From Bacteroidota bacterium (lineage in GTDB: Bacteria; Bacteroidota; Bacteroidia; B-17B0; Aurantibacillaceae): 64,000 nt of DNA. Positions 7,369 through 22,030 of the stretch are shown one piece after another. The translations under genes and the position numbers were made by a program. Where the stretch lies: the NCBI GenBank assembly GCA_013297775.1, contig JAAFIL010000011.1, forward strand, positions 1-64,000. The letters run 5' to 3'. Position 1 is the stretch's first letter; every line of letters starts with the position of its first letter. The notes below the pieces were generated by a model. It saw nothing but the letters and a program-made list of their open reading frames with translations. It was not told where the DNA came from and did not search any database.

Positions 7369-10092
7369 TTATTTCACCAATATTTTTTGAAACACCGTAT
7401 TCATAATTTCTTCGCTTTCGGCATTATGGCGTTTGCTAAAGCCCGTTGCAGGGCTGGCGGCTTCGTTGCGACCAATGTAGCGTAAATTTAATGGACGTAA
7501 TTGATAATCTACAAAACGCCAAGCACCCATGTTTTCACTTTCTTCTTGCACCCACACATGCGTTGTGGCCGAAGGGTAATTTTTTAGTACTGCATCGAGT
7601 TGTTTGTGCGGGAAAGGATATAATTGTTCGAGGCGAATAAAGGCAATATCGTTAACGCCTTCTTTTTCGCGTTGTTCAATAAGTTCGTAGTAAATTTTAC
7701 CACTGCACAGGGCAATGCGTGTAACGGCTTTCGGATGGGTTATTGAATCGTCCAATACTTCTTTAAAGCCACCTGTCGTAAAGTCGCTTAATTTGCTAAC
7801 ACAACTTGGGTAGCGCAATAATTTTTTGGGCGTAAAACAAATCAATGGTTTTCTAAACTCGCGTTTTAATTGGCGGCGCAATACATGAAATTGTTGTGCA
7901 GGTGTAGAAGCGTTTACAATTTGCATATTGTTTTCGGCACACATTTGTAAAAAACGTTCGAGGCGTGCGCTCGAGTGTTCGGGGCCTTGCCCTTCGTAGC
8001 CGTGTGGTAGCAACATCACTAGGCCATTCATGCGTCGCCATTTGTATTCCGAAGAGCTTAGGTATTGATCAATAATAATTTGTGCGCCATTAAAGAAATC
8101 TCCAAACTGCGCTTCCCAAATGGTTAAAGCATTGGGCGAGGCATAAGCATAGCCATATTCAAAACCCAACACGCCATATTCGCTTAATAACGAATTGTAA
8201 ATGTCTAATTTTTCGGGGGCGTTGATGTTGTTAAGTGGAACGTATTCTTCTTCACTGTCTTCTACTTTTAAAACGGCATGTCGGTGCGAAAAAGTACCAC
8301 GCTCTACATCTTGCCCACTAAATCTTACTTGATGCCCTTCGGTCATTAACGAGGCGTAAGCCAATAGTTCGCCCATGGCCCAATCAAAATTATCGTTGCT
8401 AATCATGGCTTGGCGATCTTTAAATAATTTTTCAATTTTATTAAAGAACTTTTTGTCGCTGGGTAATTGAGTTGTTTTTTGAGCGAGGTCTAAAAACAAT
8501 TCTTTACTGATGGCCGTATTTATTTCTAAATCAAACGCATCTTTAGTTGCCATTTTAACCCCTTGCCAAGGGCCTTGCAAAAACGAATTTACTTTTGCTT
8601 TCTCTACTTTTTTGGCTTCGTTTAAGTTTTGTTCTAAATTATCTTTATATGCTTTCTCAATGGTTTTTACTTCGGCATCGGTAAATGTATTTTCGGTAAT
8701 TAATTTTTTAGCGTAAATATCTTTCGAGTTAGGATGTACCGCAATTTGTTTGTAGAGTAAAGGCTGGGTAAAACGTGGTTCGTCGCCTTCGTTATGGCCG
8801 TATTTACGGTAGCATAAAATATCTATAAATACATCTTTACGAAATTTTTGGCGGTATTCCATGGCCATTTTAGCCACTAATACCAGGGCTTCCACGTCAT
8901 CGCCATTAACGTGAAACACGGGGGCTTTAATCACTTTAGCTACATCGGTACAATAAGTACTTGTGCGGGCATCGCGGTAATTGGTGGTAAAACCTACTTG
9001 GTTGTTAATTACTAAATGAATCGATCCTCCAACTTTATAACCATCTAAATGACCCATTTGTACTACTTCGTAAACAATGCCTTGCCCGGCAATTGCGGCA
9101 TCGCCATGCACAATAATAGGGCAGGCTTTGGTGTTATCTCCTTTGTGGCGATGATCTATTTTGGCGCGGGTAATGCCTTGCACAACAGGGGCTACAGTTT
9201 CGAGGTGCGAAGGATTAGGGGTTAACGAAATATGTACTTGTTTGCCCGAGTCGCTGGTAACGTCGGAGCTGTAGCCCATGTGGTATTTTACATCGCCATC
9301 AAATAAACTGTCTTCGCTAGGGCGACCTTCAAACTCAGCAAAAATATCTTTGGTGGGTTTGTTCATAATGTTGGCCAATACATTTAAGCGGCCTCGGTGC
9401 GCCATTCCTATCACATAATCTTCTATCCCTAATTTTACACCTTGTTCCATTAGTGCATTTAGGGCGGGTAAAAACGATTCGCCGCCTTCGAGCGAGAAAC
9501 GTTTTTGCCCAACAAACTTGGTTGCTAAAAAATTCTCAAACGTATAGGCTTCAATTAATTTATTTAAGATGGCTTTTTTTTCTTCTTTTGAAAAGGCAGG
9601 TGTATTTTGCGTTTTCTCCATGCGCTCTTGCAGCCAGGTTACAACGTCGGGGTTACGAATAAACATATACTCGGCACCAATGCTTTGGCAATAGGTTTTT
9701 TCGAGGTGCGTTATAATGTCGCGCAATTTAGCGGGACCCATTTCAATTTCGGTTCCTGCCTGAAAAACGGTATCTAAATCTTTATCAGAGAGGCCAAATA
9801 CATCTAACGACAAGTTGGGTTTATATTGGCGGCGGGTTCTAACGGGATTGGTTTTGGTAAACAAATGCCCACGCATACGGTAACCCGTAATGAGGTTTAT
9901 CACTTTAAACTCTTTACTAACGTTTTCAGGAATCTCGCCTTTAGTAGCGTTGTAATCGGTTCGAGCAAACTCAAATCCTTTAAAAAAATCTTGCCAAGTT
10001 TTATCTACGCTAGCAGCATCGTTTTGATATTGTAAGAAAAGCTCTTCAATGGCGTTTACATCGCTATTGCCGAGGTAGGAAAATTTATCCAT
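7369..10092 (-). CDS. sucA: 2-oxoglutarate dehydrogenase E1 component
   Basis: 907 aa, normal for the family. An N-terminal E2-interaction segment (FSYLGNSDVNAIEELFLQYQ, with DKTWQDFFKGFE) precedes the thiamine-diphosphate core. The core shows GMAHRGRLNVLANI, the ThDP/Mg motif around VHGDAAIAGQG and INNQVGFTT. The C-terminal transketolase-like part has LLPHGYEGQGPEHSSARLER and ends near QEESENMGAW. It decarboxylates 2-oxoglutarate and succinylates the lipoyl group of SucB in the TCA cycle. The first gene of sucAB. Confidence 0.97.
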   Translation of the reverse strand: MDKFSYLGNSDVNAIEELFLQYQNDAASVDKTWQDFFKGFEFARTDYNATKGEIPENVSKEFKVINLITGYRMRGHLFTKTNPVRTRRQYKPNLSLDVFGLSDKDLDTVFQAGTEIEMGPAKLRDIITHLEKTYCQSIGAEYMFIRNPDVVTWLQERMEKTQNTPAFSKEEKKAILNKLIEAYTFENFLATKFVGQKRFSLEGGESFLPALNALMEQGVKLGIEDYVIGMAHRGRLNVLANIMNKPTKDIFAEFEGRPSEDSLFDGDVKYHMGYSSDVTSDSGKQVHISLTPNPSHLETVAPVVQGITRAKIDHRHKGDNTKACPIIVHGDAAIAGQGIVYEVVQMGHLDGYKVGGSIHLVINNQVGFTTNYRDARTSTYCTDVAKVIKAPVFHVNGDDVEALVLVAKMAMEYRQKFRKDVFIDILCYRKYGHNEGDEPRFTQPLLYKQIAVHPNSKDIYAKKLITENTFTDAEVKTIEKAYKDNLEQNLNEAKKVEKAKVNSFLQGPWQGVKMATKDAFDLEINTAISKELFLDLAQKTTQLPSDKKFFNKIEKLFKDRQAMISNDNFDWAMGELLAYASLMTEGHQVRFSGQDVERGTFSHRHAVLKVEDSEEEYVPLNNINAPEKLDIYNSLLSEYGVLGFEYGYAYASPNALTIWEAQFGDFFNGAQIIIDQYLSSSEYKWRRMNGLVMLLPHGYEGQGPEHSSARLERFLQMCAENNMQIVNASTPAQQFHVLRRQLKREFRKPLICFTPKKLLRYPSCVSKLSDFTTGGFKEVLDDSITHPKAVTRIALCSGKIYYELIEQREKEGVNDIAFIRLEQLYPFPHKQLDAVLKNYPSATTHVWVQEESENMGAWRFVDYQLRPLNLRYIGRNEAASPATGFSKRHNAESEEIMNTVFQKILVK

Positions 10093-10114
10093 ATTACCTG
10101 TTTGAAATGACCCG

Positions 10115-10122
10115 CAAATTTA
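10115..10122 (-). promoter_or_regulatory. -7 box of sucA promoter
   Basis: On the minus strand this reads TAAATTTG, an exact TAnnTTTG match, 22 bp upstream of the sucA start codon. A TTG -33 element at the preferred spacing was not evident. Confidence 0.5.
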
Positions 10123-10250
10123 AGAAAAATATCGCAAAACTGGGTTTTTCAACTTAGAATGCCAACTTGATTACTCTTTTAGTTTAATATTGAATGGAAA
10201 GGTCATATTCTATTTTGCAGAAGGTAAGGGGAGTGATGTGTTTGCGAAAT

Positions 10251-10394
10251 AGGGTTGGCACGCTAAGACGCAAAGTGCGCAAAGGAGGAGGTGAAGGAAT
10301 TTTTAGTATTATATTTTAAGTGGATGGGTTTGGAGTAAACTATTTTTCGTTAGTAGGGTTGGCACGCTAAGACGCAAAGTAAGCAAAGGCGGAG
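10251..10394. repeat. two copies of ACGCAAAG-type short repeat cluster
   Basis: AGGGTTGGCACGCTAAGACG followed by CAAAG and another (G)CGCAAAGG-like unit occurs at 10251-10290 and again at 10355-10394. Related clusters occur at 18456-18686. Such CGCAAAG runs are common intergenic clutter in Bacteroidota. They do not encode anything and are not a CRISPR array, because spacers are absent or irregular. Confidence 0.75.
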
Positions 10395-10451
10395 ATAAAT
10401 TTTGAAAAGGGATTTTTAGAATAAATCATGGCTGTTATTTATTACCAGGAG

Positions 10452-10618
10452 TTAATACCAACATCATTTCTAAAAGATACGTTGACCCAGTTTCTTTTTC
10501 TCTTATACTTCCTCAAAATTTATACCCGTAGGCCTTGCTACGCCTATCATTTTTTCGTCGTCTAAAAGAAAAATAATTCTGGTTCAACTTGTATCTTTTA
10601 GAACCGATAGTGGTATAA
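10452..10618. repeat. 167-bp MITE-like element with ~38-bp terminal inverted repeats
   Basis: The left end starts TTAATACCA and the right end finishes TGGTATAA. Inside, TTCTAAAAGATAC (10468-10480) pairs perfectly with GTATCTTTTAGAA (10591-10603), and GTTGACCCAG pairs with CTGGTTCAAC with one mismatch. The middle is pyrimidine-rich and non-coding. It could be a non-autonomous mobile element or a large hairpin transcript; no transposase is nearby. Confidence 0.7.
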
Positions 10619-10674
10619 GTTATATGGAAGCAAGATTTTTCAAAATTTTAAATTGAACTTTTTTTACGTGGGGG

Positions 10675-10860
10675 ATATTTCGACTTCGCTCAATGTAAAT
10701 TCGGCGGCAGCCCAAGGCGAGCGTTGGCGTGCTTTTGTGCGAGCGAGGCGGCTGAGGCACGAAGACCCCGCAGCGACTTCGGCAGGCTCAGCGCAGACCG
10801 CTACAAAAGCCGCCAACGCCGCATTGGCTAAAGCCGATAGCCCGACCCCGACCTTAACCG
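10675..10860. repeat. GC-rich structured intergenic block with nested inverted repeats
   Basis: This block is visibly GC-rich in an AT-rich region. GCGTTGGCGTGCTTTTGT (from 10721) pairs with ACAAAAGCCGCCAACGC (about 10803-10819). Inside, GCTGAG...GAAG (10751-10764) pairs with CTTC...CTCAGC (10777-10792). Open frames exist on both strands but mirror each other and have no start context or protein-like composition. It is probably a REP-like palindromic repeat or a structured RNA; its base composition suggests acquisition. Confidence 0.6.
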
Positions 10861-11040
10861 TATGTACAATCATTCATTAGGCAACAGCTTTATGACTAAG
10901 CTAAACAGTAGAAATTGACAAGGGGACACGCCCAAAAAAAGAGTTAGTAATACTATTTGTATGTGTAAAATTATTCAATTGCCAACGAAAATTTTTAATT
11001 ATTCGTTTTATGCTGAAGTGATTTCTGTTTGTTAGTTGAT

Positions 11041-11556
11041 TTATTCTTTAAACCACGAGCTGTACATTAAATAGTTAGTTGCAATGCGATTAATTTCGCC
11101 GTGTATAAGTTCTTCGTTAATGTCTTTTATTTTTTTAGCTGGAACACCTGCAAAGATGCAGCCAGCGGGTACTTTGGTGCCTTCGGTTACTACTGCGCCT
11201 GCTGCAATAATAGTATTACTTCCAATTTCTACGTTGTCCATCACAATGGCACCCATGCCTATTAATACATTATCGTGTACCTTGCAACCATGCACAATGG
11301 CGTTGTGCCCAACGCTTACATTGTTACCTAAATGCACTTGTGTTTTTTGATACGTGCAATGCAACACGGCCCCATCTTGTATGTTTACTTTATTGCCAAT
11401 GCGTATGCTGTTTACATCGCCTCGCACAACGGCATTAAACCAAACGCTGCAATCGTTACCCATTGTAACATCGCCTACAAGCGTGGCATTGGGTGCTATA
11501 AAACAGTTCTCGCCCATTTGTGGCAGAATGCCTTTAACTGGTAAAATAATAGCCAT
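11041..11556 (-). CDS. gamma-class carbonic anhydrase-like hexapeptide-repeat protein
   Basis: 171 aa, the usual size of the YrdA/PaaY/gamma-CA group. Left-handed beta-helix hexapeptide repeats run through most of the protein (NCFIAPNATLVGDVTMGNDC, VRIGNKVNIQDG-like turns). Metal-ligand histidines are in HCTYQ and VGHNAIVHG. It ends in a short helical tail with the family's usual VPAKKIKDI segment. It probably binds a metal as a trimer; carbonic anhydrase activity is not certain in this subfamily. It is the last gene of the mlaE-mlaF-yjbR-like cluster, 2 bp after the previous stop. Confidence 0.88.
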   Translation of the reverse strand: MAIILPVKGILPQMGENCFIAPNATLVGDVTMGNDCSVWFNAVVRGDVNSIRIGNKVNIQDGAVLHCTYQKTQVHLGNNVSVGHNAIVHGCKVHDNVLIGMGAIVMDNVEIGSNTIIAAGAVVTEGTKVPAGCIFAGVPAKKIKDINEELIHGEINRIATNYLMYSSWFKE

Positions 11557-11558
11557 GT

Positions 11559-11915
11559 TTATTTTTTTAATAAAGCTTCTCGTTCTTTTTTGGGGAGGCT
11601 TTTTACAATTAATTGATAGGAGTCATCTATCCACGATAGGATTATTTTTTTAGGCACGCTTCCATCTACTAATACCGAATTCCAATGCACTTTACTCATG
11701 TGGTACCCAGGCGTTACGCAACTGTATTGACTGCGCAAGGCAATGGCGTTTTCTGGATCGCATTTTACATTAAACTGCAAGGGCTGCCGCTCTATGCCAC
11801 ACAACAAAAATAGTTTACCACTAACTTTAAATACTAAGGTTTCTGCATCAAATGGAAACGATTCGCTAACGCCATTTTTTGATAAACAATATTCTCTTAT
11901 TTCTTCGATGTTCAT
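11559..11915 (-). CDS. MmcQ/YjbR-family protein
   Basis: 118 aa. It starts MNIEEIREYCLSKNGVSESF with FPFDAETLVFKV, then LQFNVKCDPENA and GYHMSKVHWNSV, all typical of the MmcQ/YjbR fold (CyaY-like). The family is often called DNA-binding on structural grounds, but the function is not established. Its start overlaps the mlaF stop by 4 bp (ATGA), so it is translationally coupled to the transporter genes. Confidence 0.9.
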   Translation of the reverse strand: MNIEEIREYCLSKNGVSESFPFDAETLVFKVSGKLFLLCGIERQPLQFNVKCDPENAIALRSQYSCVTPGYHMSKVHWNSVLVDGSVPKKIILSWIDDSYQLIVKSLPKKEREALLKK

Positions 11916-12694
11916 GGTTTAAAACTATGTTTGGCGTTTTCGTTAGCGGCACTAAAAATAGATTTCATAAAATCGCTGGCAAAAACAAAATTGAAAAGTT
12001 CTTCGTTAGAGCGTTGTAAAATATTTTTCTTATTACCCGTCCACCAATTTTCGCCTTTGTAAATAAACATAATGTTTTCACCAATCTCTACTACGCTATT
12101 CATATCGTGGGTAATAATAATGGTGGTCATGTTAAACTCTTCGGTTAAATCTTTAATGAGTGTATCAATAATAATAGAGGTTTTAGGATCTAGCCCCGAG
12201 TTAGGTTCATCGCAAAATAAGTACTTGGGATTATTGGCAATGGCGCGCGCTAAGGCGGCTCGTTTTTTCATCCCTCCGCTTAACTCGGCTGGGTATAAGT
12301 GATTGCGACCTTCGAGTTTTACTTTAGCTAAACAAAAATTAACCCGATCGTCTTTTTCGGCTCGGCTTAAATTTGTAAACATATCTAAAGGAAATCTTAC
12401 ATTTTCTTCGACCGTTTGCGAATCGAATAAGGCGCCTGCCTGAAATAACATGCCAATTTGTTGCCGGATTTCTTGTTTGCCGGCTGGTGGCAATACCGGA
12501 AAATCGCGTCCATCGTATAAAATCTGTCCACCATCTAACTGGTGTAATCCTACCATTAACTTTAAAATGGTTGTTTTACCACAACCGCTCTCGCCAATAA
12601 TTAAATTGGTTTTACCTGGATGAAAATTAAACGACACATCTTTTACGACATGCCTGTCGCCAAACGTTTTATTAAGATTTTTAATTTCTATCAT
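11912..12694 (-). CDS. mlaF: MlaF-type ABC transporter ATPase (phospholipid trafficking)
   Basis: 260 aa. Walker A is GESGCGKT at residues 34-41, the signature is LSGGMKKRAALARA and Walker B is YLFCDEPNSGLDP. The Met-Lys-Lys in the signature and the NSGLDP ending are characteristic of the Mla/Mkl/Ttg2A branch rather than importers. It powers MlaE-driven lipid movement between inner and outer membranes. It overlaps mlaE by 4 bp. The partner MCE protein (MlaD) is not present in this cluster. Confidence 0.92.
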   Translation of the reverse strand: MIEIKNLNKTFGDRHVVKDVSFNFHPGKTNLIIGESGCGKTTILKLMVGLHQLDGGQILYDGRDFPVLPPAGKQEIRQQIGMLFQAGALFDSQTVEENVRFPLDMFTNLSRAEKDDRVNFCLAKVKLEGRNHLYPAELSGGMKKRAALARAIANNPKYLFCDEPNSGLDPKTSIIIDTLIKDLTEEFNMTTIIITHDMNSVVEIGENIMFIYKGENWWTGNKKNILQRSNEELFNFVFASDFMKSIFSAANENAKHSFKP

Positions 12695-13434
12695 TGGTTA
12701 AGGAAGAGGTTAGTTAAAATTAAGCCAAACAAGAGAATTAAAATACTGCTATAAACCACAGCGTTGGTACTGCTTTTACCTACTTCGAGTGCACCGCCGT
12801 TGGTGTAGTAACCAAAGTAAGAAGAAACAGAAGTGATGATGTAAGCAAATACTAAAACTTTTGTAAACGAATAATATAGTTTCCACGGATCGAAAAATGC
12901 TTGAATACCAAAGATATATTCGTACGACGAACAAGCTCCCGCAGCTACGCCCATGAAGTAGCCACCCCAAATACCTAAAAACATGCTAATGGCAATTAGA
13001 AAGGGGAAGATAAGCACCGCCGCTGCAATTTTCGGAAAAATTAAATAGCCTGCTGAATTAACGCCCATAATTTCGAGGGCATCTATTTGCTCAGTAATTC
13101 GCATGGAGCCAATTTCGGAAGCAATGTTACTTCCTACTTTTCCAGCTAAAATTAAACACACAATAGTAGGGCTAAACTCCAGCAAGATAGACTCGCGGGT
13201 GGTAAACCCAATGGCATAAAGTGGCACTAACGGACTTGTGAACCCGAAGGCTGCTTGTATAGTAATAATCCCCCCCATAAATACCGAAATAATGGCTACA
13301 ATGGGTAAAGAGGTAATACCGATGGTGTTAATTTCGTGGATAATTTGCCGCCAATAAACAGATGCTTTTTGTGGCTTGCTTAACACGCGCCCCATCAACA
13401 TAAAATAACGCCCTAAATGAAAAAAAGGTTTCAT
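12691..13434 (-). CDS. mlaE: MlaE-type lipid transporter permease
   Basis: 247 aa with about five hydrophobic segments. MlaE family marks are PIVAIISVFMGGIITIQAA, EIGSMRITEQIDALEIMGV and the closing TNAVVYSSILILLFGL. It is the inner-membrane permease of the Mla-type system. It is the first gene of a tightly overlapping set (mlaE, mlaF, YjbR-like, gamma-CA). The start ATG leaves the amphipathic N-terminal helix (FHLGRYFMLMGRVL) usual for MlaE. Confidence 0.93.
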   Translation of the reverse strand: MKPFFHLGRYFMLMGRVLSKPQKASVYWRQIIHEINTIGITSLPIVAIISVFMGGIITIQAAFGFTSPLVPLYAIGFTTRESILLEFSPTIVCLILAGKVGSNIASEIGSMRITEQIDALEIMGVNSAGYLIFPKIAAAVLIFPFLIAISMFLGIWGGYFMGVAAGACSSYEYIFGIQAFFDPWKLYYSFTKVLVFAYIITSVSSYFGYYTNGGALEVGKSSTNAVVYSSILILLFGLILTNLFLNQ

Positions 13435-13504
13435 AGATTAAAAGTTTTGTGCCTTTAAAAAATAAAAGACCTAAAACATTCATTAAAAGTACTAATATTT
13501 CGCT

Positions 13505-13512
13505 TATCTTTG
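13505..13512 (+). promoter_or_regulatory. -7 box before small lipoprotein gene
   Basis: TATCTTTG fits TAnnTTTG exactly and lies 7 bp upstream of the ATG at 13520, again suggesting a very short leader. No clear TTG -33 partner. Confidence 0.4.
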
Positions 13513-13519
13513 AAGGGTT

Positions 13520-13678
13520 ATGTCATTGAAAAAAGCCGTATCGGCCATTCTACTTTTTTCTTTTCTACTGGCTGGATTAGAAAGTTGCGTTTTGTTTCGT
13601 GGAAAAAATAAATGCGCCTCGTGCCCAGGCATATCTAAGCCTAAACGCACGCGCAAACAAAGTAAAGGTTCTATTTAA
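13520..13678 (+). CDS. 52-aa putative lipoprotein
   Basis: A short frame beginning MSLKKAVSAILLFSFLLAGL, followed by ESC. It has a basic start, a hydrophobic core and a lipobox-like LESC with Cys23. The mature part is only ~30 residues: a Cys pair in NKCASCPG, then a strongly basic tail (KPKRTRKQSKGS). A -7 box lies just upstream. Such tiny lipoproteins are common in Bacteroidota but I do not recognise this one. It stands alone between the divergent mlaE cluster and an orphan membrane-protein gene. Confidence 0.65.
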   Translation: MSLKKAVSAILLFSFLLAGLESCVLFRGKNKCASCPGISKPKRTRKQSKGSI

Positions 13679-13750
13679 TTTGTATTTCAAGAAATTGGAT
13701 GCGCCTAGACGCAATTGTTAGGCCCCAAAAGTGTTAGATATTAGGTCAAT

Positions 13751-14347
13751 ATGAGGAGACCCAAACCCAATTTAAAATCCATTCAAAAAGCACTGCAAAA
13801 GCTTGAACAAAATAACTTTCTTAACGAGAGACGTCGGAGACTTTACAATCGTAAATACAGGAAAAGTTTATTTTTTATTTCTGTGTGGGTTGGTCGAATA
13901 CTGTACTTCAGTTTGTTTATTATAGTTTGTTCGACGCATGAAATAATTAAGACCACAAGACCAGAGGTTTTAACTAAATGTGAAATAGAAGAATACTTGG
14001 GGCACTCAAGAAAAGGCTCTTATCGAGTAACAGAAGTTGCGCTTGAAACCCAATATGGCCATTACTTTGCCGAATTAATTGATGTGGATTTGCCAAAGTT
14101 GGTAAGCGGCGATACCGTAACCATAGCACGCAACTACTATGGAAAATCAATTTTTTTTACCCAACCGTCGTGGTCTGTTAGGTATGGCTTAACCAACCAT
14201 CTGATTATTTATTCATTTATTTTGTTTCCAACGTTTATTTCTTTTTTCTTCAACGATGGTTTTGACCGCTTTACTGACAAACTCTTACTCTTAATTTGGG
14301 CTGCAAACATTATAGCAATTGGTCTTTACTTCCTAACCGATTTTTAA
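13751..14347 (+). CDS. hypothetical membrane protein
   Basis: 198 aa, not recognised. The strongly basic N-terminus contains an Arg/Lys cluster around residues 27-38 (ERRRRLYNRKYRK). It is followed by one TM helix (about 40-61), a soluble central part of ~75 residues, and two further TM helices near the C-terminus (about 152-165 and 178-196). Immediately upstream of the R-M genes but separated by ~200 bp, so not obviously part of that system. Confidence 0.6.
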   Translation: MRRPKPNLKSIQKALQKLEQNNFLNERRRRLYNRKYRKSLFFISVWVGRILYFSLFIIVCSTHEIIKTTRPEVLTKCEIEEYLGHSRKGSYRVTEVALETQYGHYFAELIDVDLPKLVSGDTVTIARNYYGKSIFFTQPSWSVRYGLTNHLIIYSFILFPTFISFFFNDGFDRFTDKLLLLIWAANIIAIGLYFLTDF

Positions 14348-14544
14348 ATTGCTGTTCATTTACCAAAAATAATTTCGAATGATGCCATAGGATTAATAGT
14401 GAAAAAGTGAGCTATGCCAAGGGTTACGTGCCATTCTGGGGACAGTGCTACCATCGAAAGTTTGTGAATAAAATACAGAGCCACTTGCTAAAAGCCGACT
14501 TTTTTTTTGACTACATTTGAATTGACTTTTATTTAAACTTGAAA

Positions 14545-15432
14545 ATGGAAATATTAGGTAACAACCAACATAAAATTATTCACGGAGATGCCTTGGAGGT
14601 ATTGAAAACACTACCCGATAATTCTGTGGACTTAATATTTGCTGACCCCCCTTACAACATTGGCAAAAACTTTAACGGACACATTGAAAAATGGAAAACC
14701 GAAGAAGCCTATTTGGAATGGTGCTATGAATGGCTTGACTTGTGTGTTCAAAAACTGAAACCAAGCGGTAGTTTCTATGTAATGACCGCCACACAGTTTA
14801 TGCCGTTTTTCGACATTTATCTTCGTAAAAAATTGGACATTCTTTCTCGACTTGTTTGGTATTATGACAGTTCAGGCGTTCAAGCAAAAAAATACTATGG
14901 CTCAATGTATGAACCCATTTTATTTTGCGTAAAAGATAAAAACAACTATACATTTAACACAAACGAAATTTTAGTAGAAGCAAAAACAGGAGCAAAACGT
15001 AAACTCATTGACTATCGTAAAGCTGTTCCGACAGTTTATAATTCCGAGAAAGTACCAGGTAATGTTTGGGAATATGCAAGGGTTCGTTATCGTATGGACG
15101 AATACGAAAATCACCCAACACAAAAACCAATTGCTTTACTTGAACGAATTGTCAAAGCAAGTTCTAACGAAGGAGATTTAGTTTTAGACCCATTTTCGGG
15201 AACATTTACAACTTGCTTTGTTGCAAAAGAACTTGGTAGAAATTCCATTGGCATAGAACTACAAGACGAATATGTAAAAATCGGTTTGCGGAGATTACAA
15301 TTAGCGGAAGAGTTTAAAGGTGTAAAACTTGAAAAGGAAATTCGAACATTCGAAGTAGAAAAGTTGGCTACCGCTAACACCTTAAAATTATTTGAAGAGC
15401 CAAATGGAAAATATATTCACAGCAAACATTAA
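14545..15432 (+). CDS. type II beta-class N6-adenine DNA methyltransferase, YhdJ-like (predicted ATGCAT)
   Basis: 295 aa from the ATG at 14545; an upstream in-frame TTG is less likely. Catalytic motif IV is DPPY at residues 34-37 and the AdoMet motif I (DPFSGTFTT) is at about 215-223. This circular order is the beta class. Long stretches (DLIFADPPYNIGKNF, YDSSGVQAKK, GSMYEPIL, YTFN, RYRMDEYENHPTQKP) closely follow E. coli YhdJ as I recall it, an orphan enzyme reported to methylate ATGCAT. Here it overlaps the next gene by 29 bp, so it is the modification half of an R-M pair. The specificity is inferred from resemblance. Confidence 0.9.
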   Translation: MEILGNNQHKIIHGDALEVLKTLPDNSVDLIFADPPYNIGKNFNGHIEKWKTEEAYLEWCYEWLDLCVQKLKPSGSFYVMTATQFMPFFDIYLRKKLDILSRLVWYYDSSGVQAKKYYGSMYEPILFCVKDKNNYTFNTNEILVEAKTGAKRKLIDYRKAVPTVYNSEKVPGNVWEYARVRYRMDEYENHPTQKPIALLERIVKASSNEGDLVLDPFSGTFTTCFVAKELGRNSIGIELQDEYVKIGLRRLQLAEEFKGVKLEKEIRTFEVEKLATANTLKLFEEPNGKYIHSKH

Positions 15433-16453
15433 AGCGGTTTTAGAAAAACACTTTGGTAAAAATGCTGAAGATATTTTCTATAAAAGCCAACTAATCCAAT
15501 ACTTGAACGAAAAAACACGTTCAGCGAATAGAGGTTCAAAATCTCGTTCAAGTTTTGGGACTTTATATGCAATTTATACTATAATCGAAGATTATGTTAA
15601 GAATGGATTTGATAAAAAAGGAGACTATTCTAAATATGGTGGTGCTGCTTTTTCGACACTTCTTTCAAGCGCAAAATCACTTCCTTTTGGTGATAAAATG
15701 CAAAATCATTATTTCAACAATCGAACGAATTCTGAATTCAAAAAATTTTTTCCATTGTCAGAATTTAAACCAATTGAACACGAGCAAGTAAAAAAAAGAT
15801 ATTGGATTAATGAAAATTTATTAAAAATAAAAGTTGGCAAAGCCCACTTCAATATTGCAAAAGCTACTTTAGAAATTATTGAAGAATATACGAAGACAAA
15901 GCAAGATGCGTTTCAACGATTTATAAAAGCCTGTAAAAAATTGCAAAAAATCGGGAAGAAATCACCAAAAAAAATTGAAGAGTTTGTAATTGGTTTGCTT
16001 GCACCTAATGTGGATGCAAGGCTTTTTGAAACGGTGAGTTACTCTATCCTCAAATATTACTATCACGACCAACAAATTATATGGGGTTTTGAAATGAATA
16101 AACTCAAAACAGAAAATTTGAAGCTTTATAAGACAGGAAGAACTAATGCCAATGATGGAGGTATTGACTTTGTAATGAAACCACTTGGGCGATTTTTTCA
16201 AGTAACGGAAACAATAGATTTTAAAAAGTATTTCCTCGATATTGATAAAATTCAAAAATATCCAATCACTTTCGTAATAAAATCAACCGAGCCGACCGAA
16301 GACCTATTAAAGAAAATTCGAGATAAAGCAGGTAAAATTTATTCTATCAAAGCCACTGTTGACAGGTATATGGACTGCATTGAAGAAGTTATAAATATTC
16401 CCACCCTCAACAACAGATTTAACGATGCAGTAAAAGCATGGTTATCTAAATGA
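15404..16453 (+). CDS. putative type II restriction endonuclease, partner of the YhdJ-like methylase
   Basis: About 349 aa from the ATG at 15404; an in-frame TTG 12 bp earlier is less likely. I do not recognise a named family. The position, overlapping the methylase gene by 29 bp, points to a cognate endonuclease. A possible nuclease core is NDGGIDFVMKPLGRFFQVTE, a D...(Q/E)-type segment reminiscent of Mrr/PD-(D/E)xK enzymes but without the usual final Lys. The N-terminal ~180 residues are Lys-rich and helical, and AT content is high. Restriction activity is inferred from context. Confidence 0.7.
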   Translation: MENIFTANIKAVLEKHFGKNAEDIFYKSQLIQYLNEKTRSANRGSKSRSSFGTLYAIYTIIEDYVKNGFDKKGDYSKYGGAAFSTLLSSAKSLPFGDKMQNHYFNNRTNSEFKKFFPLSEFKPIEHEQVKKRYWINENLLKIKVGKAHFNIAKATLEIIEEYTKTKQDAFQRFIKACKKLQKIGKKSPKKIEEFVIGLLAPNVDARLFETVSYSILKYYYHDQQIIWGFEMNKLKTENLKLYKTGRTNANDGGIDFVMKPLGRFFQVTETIDFKKYFLDIDKIQKYPITFVIKSTEPTEDLLKKIRDKAGKIYSIKATVDRYMDCIEEVINIPTLNNRFNDAVKAWLSK

Positions 16454-16526
16454 GATTCTTGACGAAGTAGTAATTCAAAGTAAAGTTGAGTTTAATTATG
16501 AGGATACAGACGATGTTGATGACTAG
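16434..16526 (+). pseudogene. possible C-terminal gene remnant after the R-M pair
   Basis: An open stretch of ~30 codons without a start, in another frame than the endonuclease, ends with a protein-like acidic tail (VEFNYEDTDDVDD) and a TAG at 16524-16526. It could be the scar of a gene replaced when the R-M pair arrived, or chance. The rest of 16527-16761 shows no gene. Confidence 0.25.
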
Positions 16527-16761
16527 AAGACCGACACATAACGGCACATTAGCAATAGATGAGGTTTTGTACTCCACAGGCAGTTTTATGGTAGCCGAAA
16601 GTTCAGTTCTCCGCATCAGCAGTTGTGCTGAAAAGCGTACCCACCGAAAATCTACCCACCATTAAACGCCACACGATTATCATCCTATTATCGTTTCCAA
16701 AAGATAGACAGCAAAACGTATTACAATCTAATAAATAGCCTCAACCAAACAATAAAAAGCC

Positions 16762-16769
16762 TAATTTTG
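16762..16769 (+). promoter_or_regulatory. -7 box before PorG-like gene
   Basis: TAATTTTG fits TAnnTTTG. It lies 4 bp before the first possible TTG start (16774) and 16 bp before a second TTG (16786). Confidence 0.35.
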
Positions 16770-16773
16770 CGTT

Positions 16774-17598
16774 TTGTCAGTTGTATTGATTAAAAAACTA
16801 ATAGTCATTTTTTTACTCATCACCCATTGCGTAAGTTTTGCGCAAACACGTAAACGTAATTTTCGTCAGCACGAACTTGGCGTTTTACTGGGTACATCGT
16901 ATTATATTGGCGATTTGAATCCGCGCTTTCACTTTTTAATGCCGCAGCCCGCTGGGGGTTTATTTTACCGTTTTACCTGGAGTTACCGCTATGCTTTGCG
17001 TGCAGGGTTTAATTATGGGCGTATTATGGGCGATGATAGCCGTAGTTCGAATGCTGATTTAAAATTCAGAAACCTCAACTTTCGGTCGAATATTTATGAA
17101 TTTAATGTGGTAGGCGAGTTTAATTTTTTAGAGTACCGATTAGGGCATCAACGGCATTATTTTACGATGTTTTTATTTGGCGGCATGGCGGGCTTTCATT
17201 TTGACCCTAAAGGCAATTTAGGAGATGGCAAATGGCGCAGTTTAGCTCCTTTACAAACCGAAGGAACTCGATATAGCCGATTTCAAATTTCGATACCTTT
17301 TGGCATTGGGTTTAAATGGAATGTAACCGATAACATTGGTTTAAGTGTAGAATGGGGTCCTCGAAAAACTTATACCGATTATTTAGATGATGTAAGCGGT
17401 CTGTATTACGATTTCTCTAAAAATGCACCTAACAGTAGCGATACAAGAACTTTTGCTTACCGCAGCGGCGATACTTACAATTATGTTGGAACGGCGCGCG
17501 GAAATCCACGAACAAAAGATTGGTACTTTTTTACAGGTTTTAGTATAAACTTTAAATTACCAAAAGCCAATCAGCCTTGTTACGCAAAAGGGCTTTAA
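16774..17598 (+). CDS. outer-membrane beta-barrel protein, DUF6089/PorG-like
   Basis: 274 aa. A signal peptide ends ...VSFAQ, then HELGVLLGTSYYIGDLNPRF opens a barrel of the DUF6089 type. Repeated aromatic strands follow (YRYALRAGFNYGRI, YEFNVVGEFNFLEY, YFTMFLFGGMAGFHF, IPFGIGFKWNV) and the last strand is WYFFTGFSINFKL. Type IX secretion protein PorG belongs to this family, so an outer-membrane role in T9SS is possible. There is no ATG at the 5' end; the start is TTG, at 16774 or better at 16786 (MIKKLIVIF...). Confidence 0.8.
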   Translation: MSVVLIKKLIVIFLLITHCVSFAQTRKRNFRQHELGVLLGTSYYIGDLNPRFHFLMPQPAGGLFYRFTWSYRYALRAGFNYGRIMGDDSRSSNADLKFRNLNFRSNIYEFNVVGEFNFLEYRLGHQRHYFTMFLFGGMAGFHFDPKGNLGDGKWRSLAPLQTEGTRYSRFQISIPFGIGFKWNVTDNIGLSVEWGPRKTYTDYLDDVSGLYYDFSKNAPNSSDTRTFAYRSGDTYNYVGTARGNPRTKDWYFFTGFSINFKLPKANQPCYAKGL

Positions 17599-17608
17599 CT
17601 CAACTTGG

Positions 17609-18265
17609 TTAGTCGCGTTCGTCAATAATTTGATCGGCTTTCAATCCTTTGGTATCAAATGTAAACGTTGTTTCGACAATTTCGGTATTCGGTTTTAAAC
17701 TTTTTACTTCGTACGTGGTAGTGCCGCCATCCTTCATCATCATTTTTACCAAAGCCACTTGTTTTTTAGTTCTATCCACGTATAATTTAATGGTATGAAA
17801 CTTTTTCTTTTCGGGCTTGATGGTAGGGTACAAATCAACAATAGCGCAAGTACTAGTCCCTACTTTTTCGTCTTTATCGTATTTATAATTAAAACCTGTT
17901 TCGTAAATGGTAAAAATTTTGCTAGGATTTAATTGATCGTCGCTGGCCACTTCAAAATTTTTAATGGTTACTTCTTTGGCATCTTTATTATAGTTCCATA
18001 ATGTTTTACCATCGCAAACAATGGTATTACCTGGAATTTCCATACGAAATTTTTGACCCTTGATTTGCGCTTTGCCTACCCATTTTTCGAGTTGTTTTTT
18101 ATCTTTATTAGCCATTACAAAAACAAAGTCGGCCGTAATGGTTTTATACCCTTTGGTAGTTTTGCTTAAATCGTCTAATATAACTTTGGCTTTAGGATCT
18201 TGGGCAGATTGTGCCAATACGTTTAAACTAAAACTAATTAAAAGGAGGGATATTATTTTTTTCAT
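17609..18265 (-). CDS. lolA: LolA-like outer-membrane lipoprotein carrier
   Basis: 218 aa with a signal peptide (residues 1-18, ...NVLAQ). The LolA-type unclosed beta-barrel is suggested by ITADFVFVMANKDKKQLEKW, KGQKFRMEIPGNTIVCDGKT, LWNYNKDAKEVTI and DLYPTIKPEKKKF. It shuttles lipoproteins across the periplasm from LolCDE. It is convergent with the PorG-like gene (10 bp between stops). The usual ftsK neighbour seen in other Bacteroidota is not here. Confidence 0.88.
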   Translation of the reverse strand: MKKIISLLLISFSLNVLAQSAQDPKAKVILDDLSKTTKGYKTITADFVFVMANKDKKQLEKWVGKAQIKGQKFRMEIPGNTIVCDGKTLWNYNKDAKEVTIKNFEVASDDQLNPSKIFTIYETGFNYKYDKDEKVGTSTCAIVDLYPTIKPEKKKFHTIKLYVDRTKKQVALVKMMMKDGGTTTYEVKSLKPNTEIVETTFTFDTKGLKADQIIDERD

Positions 18266-18384
18266 AGTGTATGCTAAAACAAAAGTGATGCCAATTTAGA
18301 CGCACGAATTTACTAAAAGTTTAAAATACTCCTAGAAAATCTTAATAAATGCAAAAGTTATGATTATTTCAAGCTAAAATAGAC

Positions 18385-18423
18385 TTATACCAAATTTTAA
18401 GAAAGAGGGGCTTTAGAATAAAA
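18385..18423 (-). repeat. inverted copy of the flank of the large palindromic repeat
   Basis: TTATACCAA followed by ATTTTAAGAAAGAGGGGCTT and TAGAATAAAAT is nearly the reverse complement of the flank seen at 87-115 and 56920-56945. Degenerate pieces of the same word recur at 18508-18527 and 18706-18730. Confidence 0.6.
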
Positions 18424-18455
18424 TCTATAATTCGATTAAATAATAGAAGACACTA

Positions 18456-18686
18456 AAAATAGCACGCCAAGTTTGCAAAGGAAAAATAAATAAATCGTTG
18501 ATCTTAAATTTTTAAGAAAGAGGAATTTTGAGCAACTCAATTTCATTGGTAATGGCACGCAAAGGCGCAAAGAACGCAAAGGGAGCAATGAATTTATAGT
18601 TGGTGTGAGTTTGTTAAGCGAGATGAGCTAAATGATTTGGAATGGGAATGGCACGCAAAGACGCAGAGGTCGCAAAGGGAGCAATG
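18456..18686. repeat. CGCAAAG-type short repeat clusters
   Basis: GGCACGCAAAGGCGCAAAGA with further ACGCAAAGGGAGCAATG occurs at 18554-18590 and a near copy at 18650-18686. A weaker one (AGCACGCCAAGTTTGCAAAGG) begins near 18460. They are the same family as 10251-10394. Non-coding. Confidence 0.7.
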
Positions 18687-18774
18687 GTGGAAGCGTTAGA
18701 TTTTAAGAGAATGGGATTTAGAATAAAATGTGATACTTGACAACTAACCTCTAAATGAATTAAGCTGTATGGAA

Positions 18775-18925
18775 TTGATTTATAAGTTATCGTTTTATAC
18801 TTATACGAACTTGATTTATAATTTAATCCAATCGTTAACTAAGTTATAAATCAAATTAGCATAAAGTAAACTGTTCTTAAATTTAGAATGAACTCTTTTT
18901 ACGTGAGCGATATTTTATAAATCAA
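18775..18925. repeat. alternating copies of TTGATTTATAA
   Basis: TTGATTTATAA is at 18775-18785 and 18811-18821; its reverse complement is at 18844-18854 and 18915-18925. They could pair into hairpins. The segment 18886-18916 also shares a word (ACTnTTTTTACGTG..GATATT) with 10655-10680, showing a wider dispersed family. Confidence 0.5.
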
Positions 18926-18950
18926 GTTAATATGAAAGACCAAAAATAAA

Positions 18951-18978
18951 AAAGCCGCTTCTAATACGAAGCGGCTTT
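18951..18978. terminator. bidirectional intrinsic terminator downstream of infB
   Basis: A perfect 11-bp stem AAAGCCGCTTC / GAAGCGGCTTT with a 6-nt loop, with A-rich sequence on the left and T-rich on the right. Located ~205 bp past the infB stop; read leftwards it would end the rimP-nusA-infB transcript. Confidence 0.85.
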
Positions 18979-19183
18979 TTATTAGTTTGTATAAATCGAA
19001 TGGGTAATTATAGCTATTATGCAATCCACTCTGCTTGTTCTTTTTAATTTATACTTCTTCAAAAAATCTTTCGTAATTACTACTATGCAAGATTTTTTTT
19101 CTTCGCCTAAATAAAATTTATGCTCAGCACAGCCGAAGTGAATAACTTCGCATATTTAGACTACCTGATAGTTACAATTGGTA

Positions 19184-22030
19184 TTAGAGTTTAGCTTTTA
19201 TTTCTACCATGTCGTATCCTTCAATAATGTCGCCAACTTTAATATCGTTGAAGCCATCAATGTTTAACCCGCATTCGTAACCTGTGGCCACTTCTTTTAC
19301 ATCGTCTTTAAAGCGTTTTAAAGAGCCTAAAGCCCCCGAATGAACCACAATGCCATCGCGTATGATACGCACTTTTGTATGGCGGGTTACTTTTCCATCT
19401 AACACATAACAACCTGCAATGGTTCCTACTTTGGTGATGTTAAAGACTTCGCGAATTTCGATGTTACAAACAATTTTCTCTTCAAATTCGGGAGCTAACA
19501 TCCCTTCCATTGCGGCCTTAATTTCGTTGATGGCATCGTAAATGATAGAGTATAAACGAATGTCAATCTCTTCGGTTTCGGCTAACTTACGTGCATTGGT
19601 GGTTGGTCGAACTTGGAAACCAATAATGATAGCATTAGAAGCTGATGCTAATAATACATCAGTTTCACTAATAGCCCCTACTGATTTATGAATGATATTA
19701 ATTGCAATTTTTTCGGTACTTAGTTTCAATAAAGAGTCGCTCAAGGCTTCAATAGATCCATCCACATCACCTTTCACAATAACGTTTAATTCTTTAAAAT
19801 CGCCAATGGCTAAACGGCGACCAATTTCATCGAGTGTAATGTGTTTATGTGTGCGAATACCTTGCTCGCGTTGTAATTGTAGGCGTTTGTTGGCTATCTC
19901 ACGTGCTTCGCGTTCGTCGCTCATCACATTAAATTTATCGCCAGCTTGTGGCGCACCACTTAAACCTAATACTTTAACAGGCATAGATGGCCCCACTTCG
20001 GTTACTTTTTGACCGCGTTCGTTAAACATGGCTCTTACACGGCCACTAAAGCTCCCCGCCAACATAATATCTCCAATTTTTAGCGTCCCCGATTGTACTA
20101 AAATAGTGGCAACGTAGCCACGTCCTTCTTCGAGTGAGGCTTCGATAACGCTACCCGTGGCATTACGACTTGGATTGGCTTTTAAGTCCATTATTTCCGC
20201 CTCTAGCACTACTTTTTCGAGTAATAAATCTATGTTTTTACCCAATTTAGCACTTACTTCTTGGCATTGGTATTTACCACCCCATTCTTCAACTAAAATA
20301 TTCATTTGCGAAAGTGCTTCGCGAATTTTATCGGGATTAGCCCCTGGTTTATCCATTTTGTTAATGGCAAAAATCATGGGTACACCAGCCGCTTGGGCGT
20401 GGTTAATAGCTTCTTTGGTTTGCGGCATTACACTATCGTCGGCCGCTACTACAATGATAGCTAAGTCGGTTACCTTAGCACCCCGCGCACGCATGGCGGT
20501 AAACGCTTCGTGACCCGGTGTATCGAGAAATGTAACGGAACGGCCATCGCCTAATTTTACATTGTAGGCTCCAATGTGTTGGGTAATTCCACCCGCTTCG
20601 CCCGAAACAACATTGGCTTTACGAATAAAATCGAGTAAAGAGGTTTTCCCATGATCAACGTGTCCCATTACTGTAACAATAGGCGGACGCGAAACTAAAT
20701 CTTCGGGTTTATCTTTATCTTCTTCTTTAATGGTTTCAATGTCTTCGGCACTTGCAAACACTACCGAGTATCCGAACTCTTCGGCCACAATGGTAATGGT
20801 TTCGGCATCTAACCGTTGATTGATACTTACAAATAACCCCAAAGACATACAGGTTGAAATAATTTTTGTTACCTGCACATCCATCATTTGAGCCATTTGA
20901 TTGGCACTTACAAACTCGGCTACTTTTAATACTTTTTTGTCGGCTTCGAGTTGTTCTTGTTGTTTATCAAGGCGTTCGCGTACCTCTCCGCGTTTGTCGC
21001 GGCGGTATTTAGAGGCTTTTGATTTATTTCCTTTTTCGCTAAGGCGCGCAAGGGTTTCTTTAATTTGCTTTTGAATTTCCTCTTCGGTTAATTCGTGGCG
21101 TGGTTTATTTTGATTAGGATTAGTGCCTGGTTGTCCGGGCTTTTTATGACGCGGGTCGCCATACTTTTCTTTTGCTTTTTCTTTGGCAATGGCGGCTTGT
21201 TCTTTCCCAACTTTCTTAATTTCTTCTTGGCTCATGCCACCTTTAACAATGCGCTTACGTTTCTTTCTATCGTGCGAGTTGTTATCTGTTTTTTTCGCAG
21301 GTTCTTTGGTAACAGGGAGTTCTACACGGCCTAATATTTTTGGTCCATCTAACTTTTGGAAAACTGTTTCAATGTGTTCGGGGGTAGTATTTACTTCTGC
21401 TATGGGCGTAGGAATGACAACAGGTTTTTCCTCTACCTTTTTCTCGGGTACTACCACTTTAGGAGGTTCTACTTTTTTGACCTCACTTACTGGTTTCGGT
21501 TTTTCTTCCGCTTCTCGTTTGACTTTTTTGTCGGGCTTTGTTTTTAGGTTCATGCTGTCCAAATCCAGCCTACCTAAAACTTTTGGCCCTGTATCTTTAG
21601 CATCGGTAGTAGTAACAACGGGTTCCAATATCAATTTCACCTCAGGAGTATAGGTTTCGTTGATTTTTTTCTCTTCGTCTTTTTTCTCTTCTACCTTTTT
21701 AGAAGGGATGGTTAAATCTTTAATGCGAATTTCTTCTTGCTCGTGATCTTGATCTTCGCGTACTTTTTTGATTTTTACTTCATCCAATACAATTGTTTCG
21801 CGCTTCACTTTTGTGATGCTAAGCGAAACGTGTTCAGCTTCTTCACGAGCCGACCTATCGCCGCTAAACTCCTTTAGCAGCAAGGCATACTCATCTTCTC
21901 CAATTTTTGCATTTGGATTGGAGTCAACGGGTTTTCCTTTTGAGCCAAGGAACTCCACTATCTTTCCGAGCGAAAGATTAAATTCTCTGGCGACTTTACT
22001 TAGACGAAGTTGTTTTGGTCCTTCTGACAT
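19184..22030 (-). CDS. infB: translation initiation factor IF-2
   Basis: 948 aa. An N-terminal IF2_N segment (RLSKVAREFNLSLGKIVEFL) is followed by a long charged Lys/Glu/Pro-rich region to about residue 400. The GTPase domain has GHVDHGKTSLL, DTPGHEAF and NKMD, and domains II-IV run to the C-terminus. It places initiator tRNA on the 30S subunit. It is the last gene of rimP-nusA-infB. The low-complexity charged linker is typical for Bacteroidota IF-2. Confidence 0.98.
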   Translation of the reverse strand: MSEGPKQLRLSKVAREFNLSLGKIVEFLGSKGKPVDSNPNAKIGEDEYALLLKEFSGDRSAREEAEHVSLSITKVKRETIVLDEVKIKKVREDQDHEQEEIRIKDLTIPSKKVEEKKDEEKKINETYTPEVKLILEPVVTTTDAKDTGPKVLGRLDLDSMNLKTKPDKKVKREAEEKPKPVSEVKKVEPPKVVVPEKKVEEKPVVIPTPIAEVNTTPEHIETVFQKLDGPKILGRVELPVTKEPAKKTDNNSHDRKKRKRIVKGGMSQEEIKKVGKEQAAIAKEKAKEKYGDPRHKKPGQPGTNPNQNKPRHELTEEEIQKQIKETLARLSEKGNKSKASKYRRDKRGEVRERLDKQQEQLEADKKVLKVAEFVSANQMAQMMDVQVTKIISTCMSLGLFVSINQRLDAETITIVAEEFGYSVVFASAEDIETIKEEDKDKPEDLVSRPPIVTVMGHVDHGKTSLLDFIRKANVVSGEAGGITQHIGAYNVKLGDGRSVTFLDTPGHEAFTAMRARGAKVTDLAIIVVAADDSVMPQTKEAINHAQAAGVPMIFAINKMDKPGANPDKIREALSQMNILVEEWGGKYQCQEVSAKLGKNIDLLLEKVVLEAEIMDLKANPSRNATGSVIEASLEEGRGYVATILVQSGTLKIGDIMLAGSFSGRVRAMFNERGQKVTEVGPSMPVKVLGLSGAPQAGDKFNVMSDEREAREIANKRLQLQREQGIRTHKHITLDEIGRRLAIGDFKELNVIVKGDVDGSIEALSDSLLKLSTEKIAINIIHKSVGAISETDVLLASASNAIIIGFQVRPTTNARKLAETEEIDIRLYSIIYDAINEIKAAMEGMLAPEFEEKIVCNIEIREVFNITKVGTIAGCYVLDGKVTRHTKVRIIRDGIVVHSGALGSLKRFKDDVKEVATGYECGLNIDGFNDIKVGDIIEGYDMVEIKAKL

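What the first reader, a model, noticed from the sequence alone, without database searches (positions are those of the whole stretch)
14545..16453. R-M pair predicted to target ATGCAT, and ATGCAT not found in the 64 kb
The methylase resembles E. coli YhdJ (reported to methylate ATGCAT) through most of its length, and overlaps a Lys-rich gene with a Mrr-like GGIDFV...FFQVTE segment. Reading the + strand by eye (the word is palindromic), I met no ATGCAT, while ATGCAA, ATGCAC and ATGCAG occur about fifty times in total (for example ATGCAC at 1085, ATGCAG at 5153). Such absence would be strong avoidance and suggests the endonuclease is, or was, active.
Basis: partly seen in the sequence, partly recalled or inferred. 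Interest (0 to 1): 0.75.

Follow-up and report, generated by a model that had tools for sequence, protein, structure and literature searches.

The report
Frameshifted YhdJ-type R-M pair
A common kind of bacterial DNA-defence gene pair, probably aimed at ATGCAT, sits here with its cutting enzyme truncated, and the missing ATGCAT sites are part of a general shortage of such palindromes rather than a footprint of this enzyme.

Summary
In detail: ATGCAT occurs 0 times in the window, and a YhdJ-like methylase (60% identical to E. coli YhdJ) overlaps a type II endonuclease gene (PADLOC PDLC03455, E 6e-138). A relative of the methylase lies beside this endonuclease in 79 of 80 related loci, so the R-M pair is real, and ATGCAT is the likely methylation target by homology.

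The inference from avoidance fails. The genome has 169 ATGCAT sites. ATGCAT is one of 12 absent palindromes in the window. In 464 kb of this genome, 6 palindromes are more depleted. A same-genus genome without the pair is equally poor in ATGCAT. Genomes carrying the pair are poor in ATGCAT, but poorer still in CATATG and GTATAC.

The endonuclease gene here also carries a frameshift that removes about 28 C-terminal residues, whereas 76 of 80 relatives have long open frames. The pair travels as a sharp 2.1-kb unit whose edges look like an integron gene cassette in some relatives. It is a new, probably decaying, member of a known kind.

The parts
14545..15432 (+). YhdJ-type beta-class N6-adenine DNA methyltransferase, 295 aa; DPPY at residue 34, DPFSG at residue 215 (the class name beta is recalled)
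   Evidence: NF008572 478.8 bits against cut-off 292; PF01555; 60% identity over 278 aligned columns to E. coli K-12 YhdJ; motifs
15404..16453 (+). Type II restriction endonuclease gene, truncated open frame of 349 aa (intact relatives mostly 366-378 aa); predicted N-terminal winged-helix-like part and C-terminal PD-(D/E)XK-like nuclease part
   Evidence: PADLOC PDLC03455 458 bits, profile positions 7-345 of 382; alignments A1, A3; models and pdb_via
16430..16439 (+). Frameshift (+1 relative to six relatives) near the 3' end of the endonuclease gene
   Evidence: DNA alignment A2; three-frame reading
16440..16526 (+). Out-of-frame remainder of the conserved endonuclease C-terminus (GYLNEILDEVVIQSKVEFNYEDTDD-like), free of stops up to its end
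14423..14432 (+). 5' edge of the mobile unit, GTTACGTGCC (GTTATGTGCC in close relatives)
   Evidence: homology to seven relatives in other surroundings starts here; letters checked
16533..16542 (+). 3' edge of the mobile unit, GACACATAAC (GGCACATAAC in close relatives, the complement of their 5' edge); degenerate here

Best explanation
This is a compact, horizontally moving type II R-M module. It pairs a YhdJ-type N6-adenine methyltransferase, predicted to methylate ATGCAT, with an overlapping cognate endonuclease of the PADLOC PDLC03455 family, and it was acquired as one unit of about 2.1 kb. When intact it would protect the host's own ATGCAT sites by 6mA and cut unmodified incoming DNA. In this assembly a frameshift has removed the endonuclease's conserved C-terminal helix, so the copy is probably drifting towards a solitary methylase, unless the shift is a sequencing error. 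The absence of ATGCAT in the window belongs to a genome-wide shortage of many 6-bp palindromes and is not a specific footprint of this enzyme. Shown by sequence: the pair, its conservation, the sharp unit edges, the frameshift, and the general palindrome shortage. Inferred from homologues: the ATGCAT target. Inferred only: loss of cutting.
For: Methylase: NF008572 well over its cut-off; 60% identity to E. coli YhdJ. YhdJ methylates ATGCAT in Salmonella, and the methylation is gone in deletion mutants (passages of PMC9239280). Endonuclease: PDLC03455 E 6e-138. A methylase relative lies beside it in 79 of 80 loci; the exception has the endonuclease at a contig end, and in L163 and L165 only part of the methylase aligned. 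yhdJ is annotated next to it on the five plasmid records read, of 11 with a match: Leptospira, Lactiplantibacillus, two E. coli, Acetobacter. Frameshift: with 76 of 80 relatives holding frames of 356-386 aa from the match start. Unit edges: homology to seven relatives starts at the same base and in six of them ends within 6 bases of one another. General palindrome shortage. Recent arrival: only 2 of 40 same-genus genomes score over the YhdJ cut-off, and the other one, which is also the closest by one marker protein, carries the pair in other surroundings.
Against: ATGCAT is really depleted here: 14 against 82 expected (max-order Markov) in 464 kb. Carriers as a group have fewer ATGCAT sites than non-carriers, and two intact carriers are the poorest of their genus samples (1 of 21, 1 of 65), so part of the depletion may still come from this family. 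The frameshift may be an assembly error. The shifted tail is otherwise intact, so truncation could be very recent, or the enzyme could tolerate it. No methylome exists for this organism in the tools.
Confidence: 0.77

Rival explanations
1. One reading: an active ATGCAT endonuclease has purged its site from this genome.
For: 0 sites in 64 kb; 0.17 of max-order expectation in 464 kb; 50 carriers against 383 non-carriers have a lower ATGCAT:TACGTA ratio (median 1.49 against 2.66, p 2e-7) and a lower ATGCAT density (138 against 215 per Mb, p 7e-6); 8 of 10 isolate carriers have a ratio under 1.
Against: CATATG and GTATAC fall further in the same 50 carriers than ATGCAT does (0.22 and 0.23 of the medians of 144 non-carriers; ATGCAT about 0.64 of the median of 383), and ATGCAT is the most depleted of four words in only 5 of 50. 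Part of the ratio effect comes from TACGTA being commoner in carriers (107 against 80 per Mb). Six palindromes are more depleted than ATGCAT in this genome. G019, without the pair, has the same ATGCAT density. In flanks, ATGCAT ranks only 22nd of 64 for carrier-versus-control depletion. The endonuclease gene is frameshifted.
Confidence: 0.12
2. The frameshift is an assembly or sequencing error and the pair is an ordinary, intact R-M system in the living organism.
For: One net inserted base near an A run, with the rest of the frame well conserved; 76 of 80 relatives hold long open frames; the assembly is a draft of 128 contigs.
Against: No reads are available. Other relatives also carry broken frames (L152, L164, L168, L180; and G447, G356), so decay of this gene may really happen, although those are drafts too in part.
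Confidence: 0.35
3. The methylase is kept as an epigenetic regulator and the endonuclease frame is a passenger.
For: YhdJ is solitary in E. coli K-12 (its annotated neighbours are fis and yhdU); the methylase frame here is intact.
Against: In the wider family the endonuclease is retained as a long open frame in 76 of 80 loci, and the unit is rare in the genus, which fits a mobile defence module better than a conserved regulator.
Confidence: 0.15

Closest known systems
YhdJ (E. coli b3262; Salmonella), ATGCAT N6-adenine methyltransferase
   Same: 60% identity over 278 columns and nearly the same length; scores over the YhdJ model cut-off
   Different: Solitary in E. coli K-12; here paired with an endonuclease gene. 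Target here not measured.
PADLOC type II endonuclease family PDLC03455 with yhdJ neighbour (for example E. coli plasmid pEC22, Leptospira noguchii plasmid p2)
   Same: 458-bit match of the window protein; yhdJ-type partner on the five plasmids read
   Different: On the E. coli and Acetobacter plasmids the two genes converge and a small HTH gene precedes the endonuclease; here they are in tandem with a 29-nt overlap and no such gene. The window copy is truncated.
NsiI/AvaIII/EcoT22I-type ATGCAT restriction enzymes (recalled, from no call)
   Same: Would share the predicted ATGCAT target
   Different: No sequence comparison was possible; relationship untested
Integron gene cassettes with attC sites
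   Same: In close relatives the unit edges are complementary (GTTATGTGCC / GGCACATAAC) and candidate hairpins of about 133 nt lie beside them, up to seven on one 10.9-kb contig
   Different: No integron integrase over the model cut-off in 40 same-genus genomes or nine carriers; window edges degenerate, no hairpin detected at them

Membership tests
Type II R-M system | Methyltransferase gene beside an endonuclease gene, conserved as a pair | tested here: met
   79 of 80 loci; five plasmid records read of 11
Type II R-M system | Intact endonuclease frame | tested here: not met
   Frameshift between 16,430 and 16,440; 349 aa against 356-386 aa in 76 of 80 relatives
Type II R-M system | Cleavage of unmethylated target and protection by the partner | not testable with these tools
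   Needs bench work
YhdJ methyltransferases | Score over the curated model cut-off and catalytic motifs DPPY and DPF(S/A)G | tested here: met
   478.8 against 292 bits; motifs
YhdJ methyltransferases | 6mA at ATGCAT | not testable with these tools
   No methylome; inferred from Salmonella YhdJ (PMC9239280, passages)
PADLOC PDLC03455 type II endonucleases | Match along the profile | tested here: met
   Positions 7-345 of 382, E 6e-138; the C-terminal end is missing because of the frameshift
PD-(D/E)XK nucleases | Nuclease fold in the C-terminal part | tested here: inconclusive
   EcoT38I 7edb Z 8.7, rmsd 4.3, 150 aligned, model residues 185-366, with BspD6I, FokI and MspJI lower in the list; Foldseek has nothing at E <= 0.001
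Mrr-like endonucleases | Match to a Mrr catalytic-domain model | tested here: inconclusive
   No Pfam family at E <= 0.1; the resemblance of GGIDFV...FFQVTE to Mrr is recalled
Restriction-driven site avoidance | Depletion specific to the enzyme's target | tested here: not met
   CATATG and GTATAC are more depleted in carriers than ATGCAT; six palindromes more depleted in this genome
Integron gene cassette | Complementary edges and attC-like hairpins around the unit | tested here: inconclusive
   9-10 of 10 complementarity in nine loci with one edge pair and in L173 with a different pair, of 78 loci examined; in five of the 78 the 3' edge was not properly examined (short frames), and no shuffle control was run. 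Candidate hairpins exceed shuffles clearly only in L109, L111, L113 and L124. In the window 8 of 10 by eye (letters) and no hairpin at the edges
Integron gene cassette | Integron integrase in the genome | tested here: not met
   0 of 40 same-genus genomes and 0 of 9 carriers over the TIGR02249 cut-off; one 139-aa partial match of 176 bits in G531, and split weaker matches elsewhere

The most novel reading that the evidence does not exclude
A YhdJ-type R-M module spreads across Bacteroidota and other phyla as an integron-like gene cassette, in genomes without a recognisable integron integrase, and the window copy is caught at the step where loss of the endonuclease turns an R-M pair into a solitary YhdJ methylase. 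This would be a route by which orphan methylases such as E. coli YhdJ arose.
Probability: 0.25. Interest if true: 0.45.

Novelty: new member of a known kind. Interest (0 to 1): 0.27.

Why it matters
It corrects a tempting inference. A missing palindrome beside an R-M gene looks like a footprint, but genome-wide and cross-genome controls with other palindromes show that it is not specific. It also documents a widespread yhdJ-endonuclease module, its sharp mobile edges, and a copy whose endonuclease is truncated. That bears on how solitary methylases arise and on using site avoidance to guess enzyme targets.

Tried and rejected
Avoidance as proof of target: tested with within-genome palindrome ranks, flanks of carriers (ATGCAT 6th most depleted of 64 over 80 loci; 55 carriers against 35 control stretches), whole-genome ATGCAT:TACGTA ratios and a CATATG/GTATAC control.

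Common descent with G019 as the reason for shared depletion: unlikely, since its copy of the marker protein (window 12691-13434, an MlaE-type permease by recall) is only 75% identical, against 97% for G032. This is one protein, not a tree.

Simple empty site in G032: not found. Homology to the window stops at 13,678 and no match follows in the 20 kb read.

Phage or viral origin: no match in phage records; in viral contigs 6 stretches matched a pattern and none encoded a relative, a search that reaches close relatives only. Solved homologue of the endonuclease by sequence: none at E <= 10. Foldseek gave no significant match.

Literature: in the listings of searches I saw no title or abstract opening that describes this endonuclease family or its target. 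I opened passages of PMC4676702, PMC5578853, PMC9239280 and PMC10359461 only, and the library lacks most subscription papers.

At least two of these 50 (L117, L119) appear to be the same genomes as G298 and G346 of the phylum sample, judged by equal counts. Five titled Desulfobacterota or Planctomycetes were left out of the 45-genome test. Five of 40 control stretches under 8 kb were dropped, and eight of 40. The 8 full-length and 3 fragmentary carriers and G000 were taken out of the 395-genome sample to give 383; G000, G091, G099 and G122 were taken out of 148 to give 144. 38 of 76 intact relatives were used for the structure alignments.

Full report
What was checked. ATGCAT is absent from the 64-kb window on both strands, against 24 expected by dinucleotide shuffles and 24, 24, 19 and 10.5 by Markov models of order 1, 2, 3 and 4. 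But 12 of the 64 palindromic hexamers are absent from the window, among them TACGTA, GTATAC, CTTAAG, AGCGCT and CATATG, each with 7 to 12 sites expected at maximal order.

Genome level. The genome (G000, 4.35 Mb, 128 contigs) holds 169 ATGCAT sites, so 2.5 would be expected in 64 kb at its own density and none has probability 0.08. In 464 kb of this genome (window plus 20 stretches), ATGCAT has 14 sites against 82 expected, ratio 0.17. CATATG (0 against 42), GTATAC (0 against 95), TACGTA (1 against 68), CTCGAG (2 against 49), GTCGAC (1 against 11) and ATCGAT (7 against 72) are lower. Whole-genome counts are CATATG 17, GTATAC 18 and TACGTA 28. The depletion is therefore real but general.

The genes. 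The methylase scores 479 bits on the YhdJ model against a cut-off of 292 and is 60% identical to E. coli K-12 YhdJ over 278 columns. YhdJ methylates ATGCAT in Salmonella, with no such methylation in the deletion mutant (PMC9239280, passages). A Neisseria strain with M.Nme2594ORF759P shows 6mA in ATGCAT (PMC4676702, passages), but I could not compare that protein. The second gene matches PADLOC's type II endonuclease PDLC03455 at E 6e-138, has no Pfam match at E <= 0.1 and no solved relative by sequence. AlphaFold models suggest an N-terminal winged-helix-like part (best matches are ORC2 proteins, Z about 8, residues 27-169) and a C-terminal nuclease part (EcoT38I, Z 8.7, residues 185-366; BspD6I, FokI and MspJI lower). 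These Z-scores are middling, and Foldseek found nothing significant.

The pair is conserved. One genome scan gave 448 relatives of 475 matching stretches, of which the best 80 were kept. A YhdJ-like methylase lies beside the endonuclease in 79 of 80; in the exception the endonuclease is at the contig end, and in L163 and L165 only part of the methylase aligned. By record title the carriers include Bacteroidota, Planctomycetes, Desulfobacterota and Nitrospirae; many are metagenome bins, where wrong binning is possible. PLSDB plasmids hold 11 matches; the five records read all have yhdJ next to it, three of them in convergent order with a small HTH gene. In the phylum sample 12 of 395 genomes match, three of them only as fragments or interrupted pieces and a fourth, G447, with two stops inside; in the family 3 of 87. 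No phage match was found, and no viral-contig relative in a search for close relatives.

The endonuclease frame is broken here. The open frame has 349 aa, while 76 of 80 relatives have 356 to 386 aa counted from the match start. A DNA alignment with six relatives shows a +1 shift between 16,430 and 16,440, and the conserved tail GYLNEILDEVVIQSKVEFNYEDTDD continues in another frame from 16,440 to the stop at 16,524-16,526. The lost part holds the last predicted helix (residues 348-362 in the intact model of L108), a region with invariant or nearly invariant positions. Since the shifted tail has no earlier stop, the change is recent or an assembly error; I cannot tell which without reads.

Does avoidance point to this enzyme? 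Against: G019, in the same genus, has 118 ATGCAT in 3.2 Mb, no PDLC03455 match and no YhdJ over the cut-off. G032, the closest by one marker protein (97%), has the pair and 647 sites in 4.6 Mb, ratio 0.70 in a 348-kb sample. For: among 50 carrier genomes the ATGCAT:TACGTA ratio has median 1.49 against 2.66 in 383 non-carriers (p 2e-7) and ATGCAT density is lower (p 7e-6); 17 of 45 carriers (after leaving out five of other phyla) have a ratio under 1 against 25 of 383; 8 of 10 isolate carriers do so; and two intact carriers are the poorest of 21 and of 65 in their genus. The other genus comparisons are mixed: G447 is 2nd of 2, and the fragment carriers G099 and G356 are 1st of 3 and 6th of 7. 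TACGTA is itself commoner in carriers (107 against 80 per Mb), which enlarges the ratio effect. The control settles it: in the same 50 carriers CATATG and GTATAC fall to 0.22 and 0.23 of the median of 144 non-carriers (p 3e-13 and 9e-6), further than ATGCAT (138 against 215 per Mb, about 0.64), and ATGCAT is the most depleted of four words in 5 of 50. In flanking DNA ATGCAT ranks 22nd of 64 for extra depletion in carriers, with bootstrap intervals of 0.57-1.03 (order 3) and 0.58-0.99 (maximal order) for the carrier-to-control ratio. Carriers thus tend to avoid palindromes broadly; palindrome avoidance is known in bacterial chromosomes and plasmids (PMC10359461, passages). Avoidance cannot name the target or show activity.

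How it moved. Between the window (10,001-20,000) and seven relatives, homology starts at 14,423 in all seven and ends between 16,542 and 16,547 in six; L108 runs on to 16,613, and three of the seven have a further match of 39 to 68 bases elsewhere. In nine of 78 loci the edges are GTTATGTGCC and GGCACATAAC, complementary at 9 or 10 of 10 positions, and L173 has a different but fully complementary pair; five of the 78 had frames too short for the 3' edge to be found, and no shuffle control was run. Candidate hairpins of about 133 nt adjoin the unit in several relatives. L111 has seven (six of 132-133 nt, one of 109) against none in two shuffles, and L109, L113 and L124 also exceed their shuffles, but L108, L110, L112, L114, L126 and L173 hardly do or do not. 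Folding energies are only partly better than shuffles (z from -0.7 to -3.6 in five relatives, -0.2 in the window). This looks like integron gene cassettes. However, no integron integrase scores over the cut-off in 40 same-genus genomes or nine carriers, and the window's own edges are degenerate with no hairpin found at them. G032 has the pair in other surroundings and 2 of 40 genus members have the methylase over the cut-off, which fits separate acquisitions. The genus is probably Sediminibacterium, since G032's contig has the same length as a Sediminibacterium MAG contig; this is an inference.

Verdict. An ordinary type II R-M pair of a widespread family, probably with an ATGCAT target, carried on a mobile unit, with its endonuclease truncated in this assembly. 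The striking absence of ATGCAT is real but not specific.

Noticed in passing
G000 whole genome; window: Extreme shortage of several other palindromes: GTATAC 18, CATATG 17 and TACGTA 28 sites in 4.35 Mb, while the relative G032 has 915 TACGTA sites.
   Followed up: partly
L111 (10.9 kb): Seven candidate hairpins, six of 132-133 nt, separate gene-sized intervals, like a gene-cassette array; the R-M unit lies between two of them.
   Followed up: partly
window 13751-14347: 198-aa predicted protein without Pfam, NCBIfam or PADLOC match at E <= 0.1, just upstream of the R-M unit; a GTTAGGC word lies ahead of it, so it may be another cassette (read by eye).
   Followed up: no
G000:C36:6010-7225: Four ATGCAT sites within 1.2 kb, a local cluster in an otherwise depleted genome.
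   Followed up: no
L152, L164, L168, L180: Endonuclease frames interrupted early in these four relatives, so decay of this gene beside a methylase gene may recur.
   Followed up: no
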